This document shows, piece by piece, positions 42,609 through 52,923 of a stretch of 64,000 nucleotides of DNA. This DNA comes from Natronosalvus caseinilyticus (GTDB taxonomy: Archaea > Halobacteriota > Halobacteria > Halobacteriales > Natrialbaceae). The position numbers and the translations under genes were made by a program. The notes beneath the pieces are model-generated. The model did not search any database, was not told where the DNA came from, and saw nothing but the letters and a program-made list of their open reading frames with translations. The stretch's first letter is position 1; the number at the start of each line of letters is the position of its first letter. The stretch is taken from NCBI RefSeq assembly GCF_017357105.1, contig NZ_CP071596.1, positions 806,001 to 870,000 of the forward strand. Direction: 5' to 3'.

Positions 42609-44070
42609 ATGGAATACGGTCACCGCTACCCTGCATACCCGACACAAGAGGTAGCTGGTGAACTGGAACGTCACATCGATGTTCATCGCCAAGCGTACAA
42701 CTACACCCTATACGAGTACACTCACGTTGACGCCGACAACATCGGCTCCGCGTACAAACACCACTACCGACTTCCCGGCTGGAAAGACGAGTTCCCCGTC
42801 TTCTCAGAGGTCAACTCGAAGGCTCTGCAACGAACCGTCACACGGTTCTACGACAACCTCTCGAACCTCTCTAAGAAGAAACAAAACGGGAACAAAGTGG
42901 GGATGCTCAAGTGGAAGTCACCACGGGCGTTCCAGAGTATGACGTATTCGCAGTCCGGCTTCGAACTCAAAAACACGAGTGGCCGACACGCGACACTCTG
43001 GCTCTCCAAAATCGGTGACATCAAACTCCGCTACCACCGTGAAATCCCAGATAAAGCGTCCATCAAAGAAGTCACGGTCAAAAAAGAGACGACCGGTGAC
43101 TGGTTCGTCTCGTTCGGCCTCGAAACCGACGACGCTGACTTGCCCGAGAAACCCGCGCTAGACAAGTTGGATTCAAGCAACAGCGTGGGTATCGACCTCG
43201 GTATCCTGAACTACATGCTCTGTAGGATCACTAGACTGCGGCGACTTTGGAGCAATTGGGGCTGGTTAATCGCGATAGGATCTGACCGAATATTTTCCGG
43301 ATAATGATAACTGGATGGACATATTCTTGCAGAATCAAGAGACTGCGGTGAATTCCAGATACTAGCCAAGTGGGTGACTGTTATCCGATGATATTAGGCT
43401 GATCTCAGCGTCGTCTAGCGATCCTACAGAGCAGAACTACATCCATACGTCTGACGGCAAGACAGTGGATTGGCTCGACCTCGAAGACGAGTACGAGCGG
43501 CTCCGACGCGAACAGCGCAAACTCTCGCGGAAAGAGCAGGGCTCAAACAACTACGAGAAACAACGCAAGCAGGTCGCCAAGGTCAAGCGACACATTCGTC
43601 GGAAGGTGCTGGACTACCAGCACAAACTCACGACGTGGCTCGTCCTCAAGTACGACGCTGTATTCGTCGAGGACTTGAACGTGAAGGGGATGCTTGAGCA
43701 GTCGCATAACGCCCGCAACAAGCAGGACGCGGCGTGGCGACAACTCATCACCCTCCTCGAATACAAGGCCGACCTGTACGGTTGTCACGTCGTTCAGGTC
43801 GAAGCGCGAGGCACCACTAAAGAATGTGCATCGTGTGGTGTGGAGACGGCGAAGCCCATCTGGGTACGGGAACACTCCTGTCCGTCGTGCGGATTCGAGA
43901 CGGACAGGGACGCGAACGCGGCGATGAACGTCCTTCAACGCGGCTTTTCTGAATTAGGGCTGGGATGGCCCGAAAATACGCCCGTGGAGACTGTGCTCCC
44001 TACGGACACACCTGACTTTCAGCGTGTGTCTGCAAAGCACGTCGTGGAAACGGGAAGCCTCGGGGCTTGA
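42609..44070 (+). pseudogene. tnpB: TnpB (RNA-guided nuclease family), disrupted by a MITE
   Basis: The first part (42609-43215) encodes the N-terminal domains through the RuvC-I aspartate region (GIDLGILNY). After the insertion, the frame resumes at 43442 with TSDGKTVDWLDLEDEYE and runs to 44070. The RuvC glutamate is in FVEDLNVKG, the zinc ribbon has CASCGVE and CPSCGFE, and the last aspartate is in DRDANAAMNVL. Removing 226 bp (MITE plus one target repeat) restores a single frame with all catalytic residues. The gene as it stands makes only the N-terminal part. Confidence 0.88.
43216..43433. mobile_element. 218-bp MITE inserted in tnpB
   Basis: Terminal inverted repeats TGCTCTGTAGGATC (43216-43229) and GATCCTACAGAGCA (43420-43433) are perfect over 14 bp and continue imperfectly for about 7 more. 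An 8-bp target duplication GAACTACA flanks it (43208-43215 and 43434-43441). No coding capacity. A non-autonomous element that needs a transposase with matching ends; the family is not certain (8-bp duplications occur, for example, in IS1595 and some IS5 members). Confidence 0.92.
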
Positions 44071-45956: not shown

Positions 45957-46823
45957 ATGACAGCCGCGTTCGAACTGGTCGACCTCGAGGAAGCGGACAC
46001 CCCCGGTGACGAGTGGGAGGAAATCGACGTCACCGACACGGAAGCCGACCGCATCGCCCGCAAGCGCGACCGCGAGTTCGAACAGTTCGAGGAACGCATC
46101 AAAGACGCCGACCAGTTCAAGGTCGAACAGTCGGTGTTCGACGACGCCACCTTCGCCGCGCTGTACAAACTCGTTCAGGACGGCCACGTCGAGGCCTTCG
46201 GCGGCCCCATCTCGACCGGCAAGGAGGCCAACGTCTACCACGCCCTCGGTGACGACCGGGAGGTCGCCGTGAAGATCTATCGGATCAACGCCTCGAACTT
46301 CCGCCAGATGCGCGACTACCTCGAGGGCGACCCCCGATTCGAGGGACTGGGCGGCAAGAAGAAAGATGTCGTCCTCGCCTGGGTCCGCAAAGAACTGGCC
46401 AACCTCGAGCGCGCCCGCGCCGCCGGCGTTCGCGTCCCGGAGCCAATCGCGGCCGAACGAAACGTCCTCGTGATGGAGTATCTCGGGAACGACGCGGACG
46501 GTCGGGCAAAGCGCCTCGGCGAAGTCCACGTCGAGAATCCGCGGACAGCCTACGAGGTGATCCGGGAGTACATGCGTCGACTCTACTCGGCCGGCCTGAT
46601 CCACGGCGACCTGAGCGAGTACAACGTCATCGTCCACGAGAATCAGCTCATCGTCATCGACCTCGGGCAAGCCGTCACCGTCCACCACCCCAACAGTCGC
46701 GGCTTCCTCGAGCGAGACTGCCACAACGTCGCCTCCTTCTTCCGGCGACAGGGCCTCGAGGTGACCGACGACGAGGTTCTCGAGTTCGTCACCCAGCCCG
46801 AACCGGATCCGTCTCGAGCCTGA
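45957..46823 (+). CDS. rio1: RIO1 serine/threonine protein kinase
   Basis: A 288-residue RIO1-type atypical kinase/ATPase, which acts in late small ribosomal subunit assembly. The RIO1-specific ATP loop STGKEANVYHA is at about residues 82-92. The invariant lysine is in VAVKIYRI, the catalytic loop is HGDLSEYNVIV and the metal-binding aspartate is in IDLGQAV. The first 60 residues are acidic and helical. It is monocistronic and divergent from doeA; the palindrome lies between them. Confidence 0.93.
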   Translation: MTAAFELVDLEEADTPGDEWEEIDVTDTEADRIARKRDREFEQFEERIKDADQFKVEQSVFDDATFAALYKLVQDGHVEAFGGPISTGKEANVYHALGDDREVAVKIYRINASNFRQMRDYLEGDPRFEGLGGKKKDVVLAWVRKELANLERARAAGVRVPEPIAAERNVLVMEYLGNDADGRAKRLGEVHVENPRTAYEVIREYMRRLYSAGLIHGDLSEYNVIVHENQLIVIDLGQAVTVHHPNSRGFLERDCHNVASFFRRQGLEVTDDEVLEFVTQPEPDPSRA

Positions 46824-47416
46824 CACGGTGGAAATTAGGTGTTATATTCAAACGTATTTCAATATTTATAGATAAAAATGAAGGTAGAATTCTAATAGTA
46901 TAGTTTAAATACTATCAATGTCCCAACGAATGTATGGTGGAACAAGGTGCACATCAGGACCGGTGTCCCGAGTGCGAGGGGACCATCCAATCGACGGGGA
47001 CGGAACAGATCTGTAGCCAGTGTGGACTCGTCTGTCGAGAACACGCGATCGATCCTGGCCCGGAGTGGCGATCCTACGGCGACCAGGACCAGTCTCGGCG
47101 CCGAACCGGCGCGCCGCTCACGCGGTCGCGACACGACCGCGGTCTCTCGACCGAAATCGGCTACGGTTCGGGCACGCGTCTCACCGGCCGAAAACGTCGT
47201 CAGTTCGCCAGACTCAGGCGCGAACACAACCGCGCTCGCATCGCGACCAAAGCGGATCGAAACCGCGTCTACGGATTTACCTGAATTGAGGCGCTAAGTC
47301 CCTCAACAAACGAGCGGAGCGAGCGAGTAGGGAGGGATATAGCGCCGCACGGTTCTCAAACATGTTCGATGCTTGGCCCACCGCCATCTTTATGTTGAAA
47401 CATAGTGTAAACGCAG

Positions 47417-47563
47417 ATGATGGATAGACACGAAATCGAAGGCCACGAAGTCATCGACGGGACGGCCAAAGCCACCGGGAACGGTGCTCACGTCCTCGTC
47501 CCGAAGAACTGGCGTGGTGCGGACGTGAAAGTCGTCCGAATCACCGAACCCACCGACGAGTAG
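47417..47563 (+). CDS. DUF2080 family transposase-associated protein
   Basis: A 48-residue protein starting MMDRHEIEGHEVIDGTAKAT and including GNGAHVLVPKNWRGADVKVV. This AbrB-like or swapped-hairpin pattern is known as the DUF2080 small protein found just before tnpB in haloarchaeal IS elements. It ends 9 nt before the tnpB start, so the two are co-transcribed. A role as a DNA-binding regulator of the element is likely, not proven. Confidence 0.8.
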   Translation: MMDRHEIEGHEVIDGTAKATGNGAHVLVPKNWRGADVKVVRITEPTDE

Positions 47564-47572
47564 CACCACTTG

Positions 47573-48796
47573 ATGAACTACAACTACAGGTATCGACTCC
47601 GACCGTCCGACGCCCTCAAAGAACAGTTAGCGTGGACTGTCGATACCTGTATGCAGGTCTACAACCACTTCCTCCACCGACTCAATCGCACCGATGACAC
47701 GTCTGCGTACTCCGAGCAGAAACTCCTGCCGAGCCTCAAGAAGTGGTGGAACGACCTGAAAGACGTTCACTCGAAAGTCCTACAGAAAGTCGTTCAGCGG
47801 TTGTACGACAACCTCTCGACGCTCAAAGGCCGCAAAGAGAACGGCTACCACGTCGGCCAACTCAAGTGGAAGGCACCAGACGAGTACCGCAGTTTCACCT
47901 ACAGTCAATCCGGCTTCAAGCTCAAGAACACGAGCGGCCGGACAAAACTGTGGCTCTCGAAACTCGGAGAAATCTCTATCATCTTCCACCGCAACTTGCC
48001 CGGTAACGCCGAAATCAAGACCGTGACGGTCAAGCAGGAACCCACCGGCGAGTGGTACGCAATCCTCGGCGTCGAAACGCCCGACGACCCGCCGGAGAAT
48101 TCGGAGAATCCTGAGAAGTGCGTCGGCGTCGACGTGGGGATTCTCAAGTATGCCCACGACACCGATGGAACCGCCGTCGAATCGGTCGACCTGTCCGACG
48201 AACGCGAGCGGTTGGAACGCGCACAGCGCGACCTCTCGCGGAAGGAACACGGATCTGCGAATTGGGAGGAACAGCGCCGCGTCGTGGCCGAGCGTCACGC
48301 CGAGTTGAAGAACAAGCGCCGTGACTTTCTCCACAAGTTGTCGAACTACTACGCCCGCGAGTACGACCTCGTGGCGGTTGAGGACTTGGACTTGAAGGGC
48401 TTGGTCGAACTACCGAGCAACTCGCGCAACCGAGCAGGAGCGGCGTGGGGGACGTTCCTCCGGATGCTCAAATATAAGTGCGAGCGCGAAGGGACGTACT
48501 TCGTCGCCGTGAATCCGCGCGGAACGACGAAAGAGTGTGCGTCTTGCGGCGTTTCGACGGACAAGCCGTTGTGGGTCCGCGAACACTCCTGTCCGGCGTG
48601 TGGGTTCGAGGCGGATAGAGATGCGAACGCGGCGTGGAACATTCTTTCTCGCGGTATCAAAAGGCGGTTAGGAGCGGGACGCTCCGAATCAACGCCTGTG
48701 GAGACTGCACTCCCTGTGGATACTTCGGTATCTGCAAAGCGTGTCGTTGAAACAGGAAGCCCCACCCTTAAGCGCGAGCCGTCAATCGAGCGGTAG
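47573..48796 (+). CDS. tnpB: TnpB RNA-guided nuclease (IS1341-type transposase), intact
   Basis: A 407-residue intact TnpB. The RuvC active site is complete: D187 (CVGVDVGIL), E270 (LVAVEDLDLKG) and D350 (ADRDANAAWN). The zinc ribbon cysteines are C322, C325, C340 and C343. The N-terminus (NYRYRLRPSDALKEQLAWTV) and the YDNLSTLKGRKENG region match the haloarchaeal group. TnpB proteins are known to cut DNA with a guide from the element's right end, so this protein could be active. About half of the residues match the broken copy at 42609. The start is ATG 47573 rather than TTG 47570. Confidence 0.93.
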   Translation: MNYNYRYRLRPSDALKEQLAWTVDTCMQVYNHFLHRLNRTDDTSAYSEQKLLPSLKKWWNDLKDVHSKVLQKVVQRLYDNLSTLKGRKENGYHVGQLKWKAPDEYRSFTYSQSGFKLKNTSGRTKLWLSKLGEISIIFHRNLPGNAEIKTVTVKQEPTGEWYAILGVETPDDPPENSENPEKCVGVDVGILKYAHDTDGTAVESVDLSDERERLERAQRDLSRKEHGSANWEEQRRVVAERHAELKNKRRDFLHKLSNYYAREYDLVAVEDLDLKGLVELPSNSRNRAGAAWGTFLRMLKYKCEREGTYFVAVNPRGTTKECASCGVSTDKPLWVREHSCPACGFEADRDANAAWNILSRGIKRRLGAGRSESTPVETALPVDTSVSAKRVVETGSPTLKREPSIER

Positions 48797-49404
48797 GGTG
48801 GGGTAGTTCACCGAGATCCGTCGCATTTGAAGTCGCCTCTCGCTACCCGTATCCGTCCGCGAACAGGCGTGTACCCTCTTCAAATCGGCCCAGTCGGAGA
48901 ACCTGTTCCAGGGTCGGTCGCTCGAGGGCTTCGCCGCGGCCTCGGTCTACGCGACGTGTCGAACGCGGTCGATCGCCCGAACCGTCGACGAAATCGTCGC
49001 CGTCTCCCGTGCCAGCGAAAACGAACTCAAGGCCGCCTACGACGCCCTCAACCGCGAACTCGGCCTGCCGACCGGTCCGATCGACCCGTCCCAGTATCTG
49101 CCGCGGTTCGCGTCGAAACTCGATCTCGACGCCGACGTCGAGCGGTACGCCCAGGAACGCGTCGACGCCCTCCTCGAACGGGGTCTGATCGGTGGCCGAA
49201 ATCCAGGCGGCGTCGCCGCTGTCTGTCTGTATCACGCCTCGCTCGTGCTCGACTGCGAGGCCATCACCCAGCGGGCCGCCGCCGACGTCGCCGACGTCTC
49301 GCCGGTCACGATCCGATCGGCGGTCGAACTGGTCGATCAGGTGGAGTGAGAACTCGAGGCGATCCACTTTTTTGGCGACGCCCGAACGCGAGTGCAAGCG
49401 ACGC

Positions 49405-52400
49405 CTACGTCGTCCGCAAATTGTTCGTACTCGGCTCGTAGACCTCGCCTTTCTGCTTGAGCTTCTCGATTTCGTGTTCGGCTTTCGACTGATCCATGCC
49501 AATCTCGTTCGCTCGCTCGAGGACGACGTCGATCGGCGCGCCCTCGTCGTACTCCTCCTCGACGTCGCTGATCAGTTGCTTGATGTTCTTGATCCGGTCG
49601 CGCTGGGACTTCGAGGTCCCCGCCTCGACGATGTCCGCGTCGAACTCGCCGGTCTCGGGATCGACCCCGATGTCCTGCAGACACGAGCGAACGATCTCGA
49701 TCACGCGCGTGGCGTCTTCCTCCTCGACCGTGTCGGAGAGGCGGATCCGCGCGCTGGCTTCCGACAGTCGGACCAGCCCCTCGAGCTTTCGGGCCGTCAC
49801 CGGCACCGCGGCGTCCTCGTCGGTCCCCTTCGAGCGGAGGTCGACGTAGAAGTCCCTGATGGCTTCTCGGGCCTCCTGAGTCATCCGCGGGTGGCAGTTC
49901 TGCTTGGCGTACGCAATGTACTTGCGCAACAGGTCGGCGTCGATCACCGGGTCGACCTCCTCGGTCATCGACTCGATCTCCTCGGTGGAGACGTCGAGCT
50001 GGGGCATCTCCCGTTGCTGGGTCGTCAACTCGCCGGCGTAGTTCGTCGTCAGAATGTGTTCTGCCAGATTGCGGTCTTTCTCCTCGTCGGGCTGGTCCGT
50101 GACGGTGAAGATCAGGTCGAACCGCGAGATGAGCGCCGGCTCGAGGTCGATCTGCTCACTGATAGGTTCGTAGTGGTCGAAGCGGCCGTACTTGGGGTTG
50201 GCCGCCCCGAGCAGCGAACAGCGGGACTTGAGGGTGGCGTTGATGCCCGCCTTCGAGACCGAGATCCGCTGTTGCTCGAGGGCTTCGTGCATGGCGCTGC
50301 GATCTTCCGGTCGCATTTTATCTAGCTCGTCGACCGCCGCGATTCCCTGGTCGGCGAGGACGAGGGCGCCGGCCTCGAGGGTCCACTGCTGGCCGTCGCC
50401 GAAGTCGTCTCTCACAGCTGCAGCGGTGAGGCCGGCCGAGGACGACCCCTTGCCAGAGGTGTAGACAGAACGGGGTGCGATGTTCTGGATGTACCCCAAC
50501 ATTTGAGAGTTGTGGGAGATGACCCCGTTTGAAATGTAGTTGTGCGTGCCTTCGATTTCGAGATCATAGACCCAGTCCTCGTCGGGTTCAACCGCTTCGA
50601 TAATCTCTATACGGTCCCAGCAAACGTCCCCTTCGATGAAGTGTTGAAGCCGTTGTACGGCAGTTTCGAGTGACCCTCCATCTGCGGATAGTGGGCTATC
50701 TACCTTCGATTTCTCAGACGAAAGTGACCGTTCGAACCTGGATACCACTTTTTTTAGACTCTCTCTACTAGGGTTACGAGAACCCCGTTCGTAATGCTGA
50801 TACGTACTCCGAGGAATTCCGCATTCAGCCTGTGTGAGGCCTAGCGACTCTCTGATACGCCGTAATTCTGTTCCAATTTTGGGAACTATGTCGGTATTCG
50901 TGTTCCCGGCCGTTCCAGTGTAACCGTCCGCAGCACTTTGCTTCCGATCCGTGACAAACCCGACTTTGGATACGTACGCTCCGAACTCTTTGCCGCTAAT
51001 TCGGAGTCGATGACTTCCATTGTGTCGCTCGTGCAGTTGAGAGCGAATTCCGAGGGATAGCAGAATCGATCTGACGCCTTCGAGCAATTCTTCGCTCATC
51101 GACGCTACTGTGAGTTCGCGCTGAGTTTTGGAGACGTGCCCTTCTCCCTCAATCAGTCCTTTAACGAATTCGGCTTGGATTCTTGTCGAGGTGCGTAAAA
51201 GTTGCGCCGGAACCCGTTGTTCGTGTGATGACTGCAGTAACCGTGAATCGAGTGACTGGAGGAAACTTACGAACTCGCCAGATGAACACAGTATCTCGCG
51301 AGCCTCTTTACCAGGATGCGCCTCCCGAACCGTTATATTCAAATTGAGATCCGAAAGAGCGCGCGTAGCATCTTTCAGGACTTCCCGATCATTGTTTGTA
51401 ATCGAGACGAAACCTGTGTTATCAGGGCGTTTCTCGACGTACCCCTCTGCTACAATATACCCGATTAACCGGGCGAGAGAAGGGGTCCACTCGGTTGGTA
51501 CGTCGAGGCGAACGGCATTTCTCGACTGGGACCGTCGGACATCTCCCTCGAGCGAGTCGTTTCCTTCCGTTGGGAGACGACGAGGAACGCTAATAAACGA
51601 ACCTTCCTGTAGCTCACTCGCTCGTACTGGTGTGAAGTGACCGTCTTGCTGAACAAACAACGGATGCGACGGTGTTACTTCGATTTCGCGTCCGCTCGAG
51701 GTCCGAATTCGATACAACTGGTCGGGTGCTTCACGCTTCCAGACTTTGGTAGCTCGTTGATTCGATATGGTGCCGTCCTGTTGAAGGGAGGGGACCTCGA
51801 GGTCGACTTCGTCCCACCACCCGTCGTCGACGGGTTTCGGATTCTCGAGGTTCGACTCGACGAGTTCCCGAATAGGTACGCTGCGCCTGTCGCCGAGCGT
51901 CACTCGAGTATCACCTGAAACACACTTCCCTGTACCAGGATCTCCGATAAGTAGCATGTGCAGGTCCCCGCGAATCCTCGAGCCGTCGGGTAACTGCTTC
52001 GTCACGCCCGAGAACAGTTGGAGCATCATCGCGAGCTTCTCCTCTTCGTAGCCGTAGATGGCCGGCGCGATGGAGCCGACCATGTCCTCGTAGACGTCCT
52101 CGCGCTGGGAAATCTCGTAGATCTGTTTCTTGTCCTCGTCGGTGATGTCCATGTCCTCGAACTGCTCCTCGTCGACCTGGACGGACATTCCCTCCATGTA
52201 GAAGTCGAAGATGGGCGACTTCTCCTGCTGGTTGCCCTGTTGCTCGAGGCGCAGGACGCCCACTGCGGAGACGTGATCGCCGGGGGTGACCTCGCCGGTG
52301 ATGTCGTCCTCGATGTTGACGTCGATGGCCTGGGGCGTCTCGCCGCCGCGCAGCCCCTCGGGGCTCTCCTGGATGCGCAGCTTCTGGGAGTCGACGAACT

Positions 52401-52923
52401 CGGACTGATCGAAGTTCACGCGGAAGGGTCCCTGTCGCTCACAGCCCTGGCACTCGTGGGGTTCCTGGAAGTCGCCCGTCGACTGGGGAATCCGCGAGAG
52501 GGTGCCACAGAGCTGGCACTCGAATGCGGCCTCCTCGATCTTCGGGCGGACGTCGGTGGCCTTCCGGACGATGCCGCGCACCTGGACGAGGGTGTTCATG
52601 TGGCGGGCACGAATCTCGCGGATCTCGGGGGACTCGGTGTCCGGGAGGGTGTGGATGCGGACGTGGGCCTGCCCGAGGCTGACGTCGATCGGCAGGTCGT
52701 AGAGTCGGAGGGCTTCCTCGGCGTAGCGCTGGAGCTGTTCTGGCTGGTTCAGGAAGTCGTCGGCAAGGTCCGGGTCGAATCGGTAGAGGTCCTGCCAGTC
52801 GACCGACAGCGAGCGCTGTTCGTTGGGATAGCGCTGGGCGAGCTGCTTGATCTCGTTGTCGTAGTAGTTACGGAAGAACTGCTCGAACGCGTCGACGAGT
52901 TCAGAGTTGCCCGCTTGCGCCAT
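49405..52923 (-). CDS. mcm: Replicative helicase MCM, with intein
   Basis: A 1172-residue precursor; removing the 472-residue intein leaves a 700-residue MCM, the usual haloarchaeal length. The N-terminal domain has a zinc motif (CQLCG with CQGCERQG). The AAA+ core is split inside Walker A, giving GDPGTGK before and SQMLGYIQNIAPRS after. Walker B is in ALVLADQGIAAVDELDKM, the arginine finger in ALISRFDLIF, and the C-terminal winged helix is present. It is the motor of the replicative helicase and essential, so the intein must splice. It stands alone on the minus strand. Confidence 0.95.
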   Translation of the reverse strand: MAQAGNSELVDAFEQFFRNYYDNEIKQLAQRYPNEQRSLSVDWQDLYRFDPDLADDFLNQPEQLQRYAEEALRLYDLPIDVSLGQAHVRIHTLPDTESPEIREIRARHMNTLVQVRGIVRKATDVRPKIEEAAFECQLCGTLSRIPQSTGDFQEPHECQGCERQGPFRVNFDQSEFVDSQKLRIQESPEGLRGGETPQAIDVNIEDDITGEVTPGDHVSAVGVLRLEQQGNQQEKSPIFDFYMEGMSVQVDEEQFEDMDITDEDKKQIYEISQREDVYEDMVGSIAPAIYGYEEEKLAMMLQLFSGVTKQLPDGSRIRGDLHMLLIGDPGTGKCVSGDTRVTLGDRRSVPIRELVESNLENPKPVDDGWWDEVDLEVPSLQQDGTISNQRATKVWKREAPDQLYRIRTSSGREIEVTPSHPLFVQQDGHFTPVRASELQEGSFISVPRRLPTEGNDSLEGDVRRSQSRNAVRLDVPTEWTPSLARLIGYIVAEGYVEKRPDNTGFVSITNNDREVLKDATRALSDLNLNITVREAHPGKEAREILCSSGEFVSFLQSLDSRLLQSSHEQRVPAQLLRTSTRIQAEFVKGLIEGEGHVSKTQRELTVASMSEELLEGVRSILLSLGIRSQLHERHNGSHRLRISGKEFGAYVSKVGFVTDRKQSAADGYTGTAGNTNTDIVPKIGTELRRIRESLGLTQAECGIPRSTYQHYERGSRNPSRESLKKVVSRFERSLSSEKSKVDSPLSADGGSLETAVQRLQHFIEGDVCWDRIEIIEAVEPDEDWVYDLEIEGTHNYISNGVISHNSQMLGYIQNIAPRSVYTSGKGSSSAGLTAAAVRDDFGDGQQWTLEAGALVLADQGIAAVDELDKMRPEDRSAMHEALEQQRISVSKAGINATLKSRCSLLGAANPKYGRFDHYEPISEQIDLEPALISRFDLIFTVTDQPDEEKDRNLAEHILTTNYAGELTTQQREMPQLDVSTEEIESMTEEVDPVIDADLLRKYIAYAKQNCHPRMTQEAREAIRDFYVDLRSKGTDEDAAVPVTARKLEGLVRLSEASARIRLSDTVEEEDATRVIEIVRSCLQDIGVDPETGEFDADIVEAGTSKSQRDRIKNIKQLISDVEEEYDEGAPIDVVLERANEIGMDQSKAEHEIEKLKQKGEVYEPSTNNLRTT
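50509..51924 (-). other. Intein in MCM Walker A, with LAGLIDADG endonuclease and an XRE-like HTH
   Basis: 472 residues, from Cys334 of the precursor (CVSGDTRVTLGDRRSVPI) to the terminal His-Asn (ISNGVISHN), with Ser as the +1 residue. The splicing blocks A and B are complete (TPSHPLFVQ-like block B). Two dodecapeptides, LARLIGYIVAEG and FVKGLIEGEGH, mark a LAGLIDADG homing endonuclease. Between the endonuclease and the C-terminal block lies ELRRIRESLGLTQAECGIPR and STYQHYERGSRNPS, which look like a Cro/C1 (XRE) helix-turn-helix, unusual for an intein. The DNA is more AT-rich than the exteins, indicating transfer. Confidence 0.9.

What the first reader, a model, noticed from the sequence alone, without database searches (positions are those of the whole stretch)
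46934..49349. A general transcription factor gene (TFB) disrupted by an active-looking tnpB element
Zinc-ribbon and first-cyclin coding parts are separated by 1.5 kb of IS, and the joint shows further frame damage. Haloarchaea use several TFBs for gene batteries, so loss may alter the stress transcriptome. The N-terminal half still has a promoter and would give a truncated protein with a complete zinc ribbon and B-finger, which could compete with intact TFBs.
Basis: partly seen in the sequence, partly recalled or inferred. Interest (0 to 1): 0.55.

Follow-up and report, generated by a model that had tools for sequence, protein, structure and literature searches.

The report
Conserved archaeal TFB gene, repeatedly broken
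A gene for a general transcription factor in a salt-loving archaeon is split by a small mobile element, and several related species have broken the same widely conserved gene in other ways, so the gene seems to be becoming dispensable rather than being a one-off casualty.

Summary
Confirmed: a TFB gene (46934-47280 plus 48812-49349) is split by a precise 1531-bp IS200/IS605-type element with no TnpA (47281-48811: DUF2080 protein, TnpB with RuvC D/E/D, structured reRNA end), inserted 3' of TTAC. The frame is kept across the joint; the extra damage is one in-frame TGA (48828-48830). The 3' part has no usable start codon. The 5' part is a 116-aa ORF (zinc ribbon, B-reader) behind a conserved TATA box. 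Nine other intact TFBs remain in the genome.
This TFB is an order-wide class, linked to mcm in Natrialbaceae (matches in 237 of 255 good Halobacteriales genomes). Sister species without the IS carry the same gene with different lesions: an 11-bp deletion, an internal deletion, a frameshift. Five further Natrialbaceae have their own lesions (two frameshifts, a 2.8-kb integrase-bearing insert, two lost N-termini). In all, 9 of 122 evaluable genomes are broken, 4 of 8 in this genus. Low dN/dS indicates that constraint lasted until recently.
Best reading: recent, recurrent pseudogenisation of a dispensable TFB, probably the TfbA class (inferred, not tested by sequence). The TnpB guide matches no other TFB. 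The dominant-negative fragment idea is untested.

The parts
46904..46911 (+). TATA box (TTTAAATA) of the TFB gene, about 26 nt before the ATG, so probably a leaderless mRNA
   Evidence: sequence; near-identical in G002 and G004 and similar in G007
46934..47280 (+). 5' part of the split TFB gene: zinc ribbon and B-reader/linker; the ORF runs on 4 nt into the IS and stops at 47284 (116 aa)
   Evidence: empty site in G002
47277..47280 (+). TTAC left flank (insertion target / TAM-type tetranucleotide)
   Evidence: 12 of 12 aligned copies
47281..48811 (+). IS200/IS605 (IS1341-type) element without tnpA, 1531 bp
   Evidence: ends fixed by comparison of copies and by the empty site in G002
47417..47563 (+). 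DUF2080-family transposase-associated small protein
   Evidence: NF033496, 60.9 bits
47570..48796 (+). tnpB, 408 aa; RuvC residues D188, E271, D351 present
   Evidence: alignment to 8bf8; positions
48681..48811 (+). reRNA/omega-RNA scaffold at the right end, overlapping the tnpB 3' end
   Evidence: MFE -55.4 kcal/mol, z -4.34; 9 of 40 consensus pairs with a change on both sides in 12 copies
48812..48831 (+). inferred reRNA guide, taken from the TFB gene itself
   Evidence: position rule (inference); no other site in the genome at up to 3 mismatches
48812..49349 (+). 3' part of the split TFB gene: both TFIIB/cyclin repeats, no usable start codon
48828..48830 (+). in-frame TGA (CGG in sister G002)
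45957..46823 (+). rio1 kinase gene, upstream neighbour
   Evidence: NF041310 equivalog
49405..52923 (-). mcm gene with an intein, convergent neighbour; conserved neighbour of this TFB class in Natrialbaceae

Best explanation
The feature is a pseudogene of a conserved haloarchaeal TFB, the class that lies convergent to mcm in Natrialbaceae and is probably TfbA-like. In this genome it is split at codon 116 by a TnpB element of the IS200/IS605 superfamily, inserted 3' of TTAC by a Y1 transposase acting in trans, and it also carries one in-frame stop. The insertion is one of several independent, recent lesions of the same gene in sister species and in other Natrialbaceae, so the gene is under weak selection in these lineages while 9 other TFBs carry on. 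Once inserted, the TnpB reRNA guide equals the adjoining TFB sequence, so TnpB would be expected to cut the empty allele and hold the insertion in a polyploid cell. Shown: anatomy, insertion site, sister lesions, conservation and copy counts. Inferred: trans mobilisation, guide use, dispensability, class name.
For: Domains and element. Empty site and different lesions in G002, G004 and G007. Intact in G001, G003, G005 and G006. Nine other intact TFB ORFs. Class conserved: all 125 Natrialbaceae genomes have some TFB at E<=1e-60, and in 113 of 125 the class match is near full length without internal stop (my reading of its rows); 237 of 255 good Halobacteriales genomes match at E<=1e-80. mcm adjacent in 8 of 8 sampled intact loci. 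Five further broken loci: G063, G120, G075, G076, G091. dN/dS G000-G002 0.186 over 257 codons, against 0.009-0.195 for the nine intact paralogue pairs.
Against: No second strain of the window's species was available, so IS and TGA could be strain-specific and their order is unknown. The one-frameshift cases (G007, G120) could be sequencing errors. The G002 lesion changes only the C-terminus, so its protein may keep some function. No expression data.
Confidence: 0.85

Rival explanations
1. One reading: an active IS knocked out a needed TFB, and the surviving 116-aa zinc-ribbon/B-reader fragment competes with intact TFBs for RNA polymerase.
For: Promoter and 116-aa ORF intact. G063, G075 and G120 also keep the zinc-ribbon part of a broken gene.
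Against: Sisters lost the gene without the IS. No sign of special conservation of the N-terminal part: most residue differences to G002 in the 5' part fall in its first ~55 residues (translations). The zinc ribbon is about 14% of the gene, so its survival in most lesions is expected. G076 and G091 lost the zinc ribbon and kept the core.
Confidence: 0.08
2. The TnpB guide taken from the TFB gene targets the other TFB genes, as a gene-battery regulator or cutter.
For: The guide covers coding sequence of a TFB, and TnpB keeps its catalytic residues.
Against: The best match of the 31-base end-plus-flank query in each of the nine other TFB loci is 17-19 of 31, about what chance gives over loci of 3 kb. 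A 20-base TAM+guide pattern finds only itself in the genome at up to 3 mismatches.
Confidence: 0.02
3. Loss of this TFB is adaptive, not only tolerated: four closely related species lost it in parallel because their regulatory network or habitat disfavours it.
For: 4 of 8 broken in the genus against 5 of 114 evaluable genomes elsewhere (Fisher p 0.0009), with different lesions each time.
Against: Relaxed selection in one ancestor predicts the same clustering. The test treats related genomes as independent, and the eight-genome sample is small.
Confidence: 0.15

Closest known systems
Haloarchaeal TFB families (TfbA, TfbB/D/F, TfbC/G, TfbE); TfbA of Halobacterium sp. NRC-1 in particular (PMC2121645, PMC4230888)
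   Same: One member per genome and very wide but not universal presence (tfbA 74 of 80 isolates in print; this class 237 of 255 good genomes). Deletion of tfbA is viable in NRC-1.
   Different: No NRC-1 TfbA sequence was at hand, so the class name is inferred by distribution and elimination. Here the gene is broken.
IS1341-type / IS200-IS605 TnpB elements of haloarchaea with sotRNA/omega-RNA (PMC12558985 passages; RF02656 and RF02657 named there)
   Same: TnpB with D/E/D, structured RNA over the tnpB 3' end, TTAC left flank in the copies compared here, no tnpA.
   Different: No Rfam family reached its gathering score (only RAGATH-18 at 24.6 bits, cut-off 44.9). Carries a DUF2080 accessory gene; the 88% copy on contig C2 carries another small ORF there.
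ISDra2 TnpB (8bf8, 8exa)
   Same: Alignable over residues 5-362 (E 7.2e-33), catalytic residues aligned.
   Different: TTAC flank instead of the TTGAT TAM of ISDra2 (latter recalled); no TnpA partner in the element.

Membership tests
TFB (archaeal TFIIB) | N-terminal zinc ribbon with four Cys | tested here: met
   PF08271 above cut-off in the 5' part; CPEC..CSQC in sequence
TFB (archaeal TFIIB) | Two cyclin/TFIIB repeats | tested here: met
   Two stretches of PF00382 in the 3' part
TFB (archaeal TFIIB) | Intact reading frame giving a full-length protein | tested here: not met
   1531-bp insert plus in-frame TGA: a pseudogene of a TFB, not a working member
TfbA class | One copy per genome, near order-wide | tested here: met
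   compared with PMC2121645 section 8 and PMC4230888 section 14
TfbA class | Clusters with NRC-1 TfbA in a tree | not tested
   no NRC-1 chromosomal TFB sequence was available
IS200/IS605 TnpB element | Insertion 3' of a fixed short motif, no target duplication | tested here: met
   TTAC in 12 of 12 copies; empty site in G002
IS200/IS605 TnpB element | TnpB with RuvC D/E/D and zinc-finger domain | tested here: met
IS200/IS605 TnpB element | Y1 transposase TnpA in the element | tested here: not met
   none between 47281 and 48811; four Y1 genes elsewhere in the genome. TnpA-less IS1341-type elements are a recognised subgroup
IS200/IS605 TnpB element | reRNA at the right end used as guide RNA | tested here: inconclusive
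   strong fold and some covariation; no expression or cleavage data

The most novel reading that the evidence does not exclude
A TFB class kept across the order Halobacteriales is being eliminated in parallel, by different lesions including two unrelated mobile elements, in a cluster of Natronosalvus species and in scattered Natrialbaceae, because losing it is favoured there. Each lineage would then be a natural knockout in which an archaeal basal-factor regulon has been rewired onto the remaining TFBs.
Probability: 0.15. Interest if true: 0.55.

Novelty: new member of a known kind. Interest (0 to 1): 0.38.

Why it matters
Haloarchaea are the textbook case for gain and specialisation of general transcription factors. 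The losing side is less documented: my search for TFB, pseudogene and insertion sequence in haloarchaea listed 9 papers, none with such a title; none of these was opened. A class whose deletion in Halobacterium changes 18% of genes (if it is TfbA; PMC2121645 passages) yet is broken in nine sequenced relatives offers natural knockouts, with intact sister species as controls, to ask how a regulon is redistributed among TFBs.

Tried and rejected
Guide targeting of paralogous TFBs was tested and rejected. A first idea that this TFB is a genus-specific duplicate, because no rio1 locus outside the genus has a TFB beside it (78 of 80 loci without), was wrong: the class is order-wide and its conserved neighbour is mcm, not rio1. 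Stops flagged in G025, G027 and G029 are the natural terminators. The TGA lies 17-19 nt from the TTAC, about where TnpB enzymes cut (recalled); whether it is a repair scar cannot be told, and I give it little weight. Rfam gave no family above threshold. The sigma-70 promoter scan does not apply to archaea. The paper search for HVO_0226 was uninformative. A plasmid search with the class protein found only TFBs under 60% identity in 232 records, so the class appears to be chromosomal. The rio1 tree puts G000, G002 and G004 together (100/99) but does not place G007.

Full report
The observation. The window is G000:C1:806001-870000, in a 4.24-Mb, 99.96% complete genome. Genus: the same-genus genome G003 has a contig of the exact length of one of Natronosalvus hydrolyticus (37,996) and G004 has a contig of the exact length of a N. 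rutilus plasmid (339,965), so the window is from Natronosalvus (inferred). Between rio1 (45957-46823) and mcm (49405-52923, reverse) lies a TFB gene in two pieces. The 5' piece (46934-47280) has the TFIIB zinc ribbon; the 3' piece (48812-49349) has both TFIIB repeats. The insert carries a DUF2080-family small gene and a full tnpB.

The element. Copies in other haloarchaea fix the ends. All 12 copies aligned to the window's left end, the window included, have TTAC on the left, and all 12 end in TTCAC (16 loci were examined, and the row count leaves out L023, L024, L025 and L029, whose left ends did not align from the first base, aligned on the other strand, or were absent). The window copy is thus 47281-48811, 1531 bp. 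G002, a sister species, has the empty site with nothing lost or duplicated. TnpB aligns to ISDra2 TnpB (8bf8, E 7.2e-33) with the RuvC acids at D188, E271 and D351 (that these are the catalytic positions is recalled from ISDra2). The right end folds far better than shuffles (z -4.34, 0 of 200 as good), and 9 of 40 consensus pairs show a change on both sides in 12 copies. It has no tnpA; four Y1 transposase genes lie elsewhere in the genome, so movement in trans is possible but not shown. An 88% copy sits on contig C2 with a different small ORF before tnpB.

What is broken. The flanks join in frame, so the element did not shift the frame. The extra damage is one TGA at 48828-48830, where G002 reads CGG. 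Which came first cannot be told. The 3' piece is preceded in frame by a stop at 48804 and has no ATG, GTG or TTG until codon 144 of about 178, so it cannot give a useful protein. The 5' piece gives a 116-aa ORF behind TTTAAATA at 46904-46911, a box shared with G002 and G004 and similar in G007. A truncated product is possible but unproven.

Other TFBs. The genome has 21 matches to the TFIIB repeat: 18 in nine intact two-repeat TFB ORFs, the two repeats of the broken gene, and one in a single-repeat ORF of about 137 aa.

Sisters. Of the eight genomes of the genus searched, G000, G002, G004 and G007 have the gene broken in different ways: the IS and TGA; an 11-bp deletion that shifts the last part of repeat 2; an internal deletion between short direct repeats; and a frameshift after the zinc ribbon. 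G003, G005 and G006 are intact. G001 has an intact copy about 38 kb from rio1, which groups with G003's gene (100/100). The rio1 tree groups G000, G002 and G004 (100/99) and leaves G007 unplaced. dN/dS between G000 and G002 is 0.186 over 257 codons (13 nonsynonymous, 23 synonymous changes), inside the range of the nine intact paralogue pairs (0.009-0.195) and far from 1, so constraint lasted until recently.

The class is old. With the intact G003 protein as query, 113 of 125 Natrialbaceae genomes show a near full-length match without internal stop (my reading of its rows, which would miss small C-terminal frameshifts such as that in G002; the stops flagged in G025, G027 and G029 are terminators). 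The other 12 are the four broken sisters; G063 (frameshift and truncation), G120 (frameshift) and G075 (a ~2.8-kb insert with a phage-type integrase splits the gene after the zinc ribbon); G076 and G091 (N-terminal part lost); and three incomplete genomes that cannot be judged: G042 (the contig ends inside mcm), G123 and G124 (no mcm match). So 9 of 122 evaluable genomes are broken: 4 of 8 in the genus and 5 of 114 elsewhere (Fisher p 0.0009, which ignores relatedness). Only the 9 broken loci, the intact ones of the genus and eight further intact loci were read as DNA; the rest rest on the search rows. In the order, 260 of 293 genomes, and 237 of 255 good ones, match at E<=1e-80 (truncated copies can pass). 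The gene lies beside mcm in 8 of 8 intact Natrialbaceae loci sampled. None of 232 plasmid records has a copy at 60% identity or more.

Which TFB. PMC2121645 (passages and section 8) describes a family with one member per haloarchaeon that includes TfbA; PMC4230888 (passages and section 14) gives tfbA in 74 of 80 isolates. One copy per genome and about 93% presence fit TfbA. This is elimination, not a sequence test. In NRC-1 the tfbA knockout is viable, affects 18% of genes and is impaired at high temperature (PMC2121645 passages).

Mechanism and verdict. The most likely account is decay of a dispensable TFB, here by an IS200/IS605-type element. After insertion the reRNA guide equals the TFB flank. 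It has no other site in the genome at up to 3 mismatches and no match in the other TFBs, so it could only act on empty alleles of the same gene, the usual retention role of TnpB (established for other TnpBs, recalled; inferred here). The element and the kind of event are ordinary; the repeated loss of an order-wide TFB class is the part worth keeping.

Noticed in passing
window 43465-44070: C-terminal half of another tnpB (OrfB and TNB domains, 201-aa ORF), about 68% identical in places to the TFB-borne element: a second, decayed TnpB element 3.5 kb upstream.
   Followed up: partly
window 49405-52923 (-): mcm carries a large intein with LAGLIDADG homing-endonuclease and HTH domains, at about residues 342-805 of 1172. 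The mcm ORFs of relatives vary widely in length (703 to 2341 aa), so intein content differs.
   Followed up: partly
L029 (G000:C1:1459414-1459529): A right-end-only copy of the element (79% to the last 114 bases) ending in TTCAC and followed by its own flank: a possible orphan reRNA or MITE.
   Followed up: no
L025 (G000:C1:1389929-1390559): A tnpB of the same superfamily lies within 1 kb of another TFB gene (C1:1391450-1391986), on the same strand.
   Followed up: no
L188:3113-3233; L176:1246-1377: In G076 and G091, which lost the zinc ribbon of this TFB, the new 5' end holds an inverted copy (41 and 30 nt, 85-87%) of a segment of the same gene: a fold-back rearrangement seen in two genera.
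   Followed up: partly
L189:594-3403: In G075 a ~2.8-kb insert with a phage-type integrase splits the same TFB gene: a second, unrelated mobile element in this gene.
   Followed up: partly
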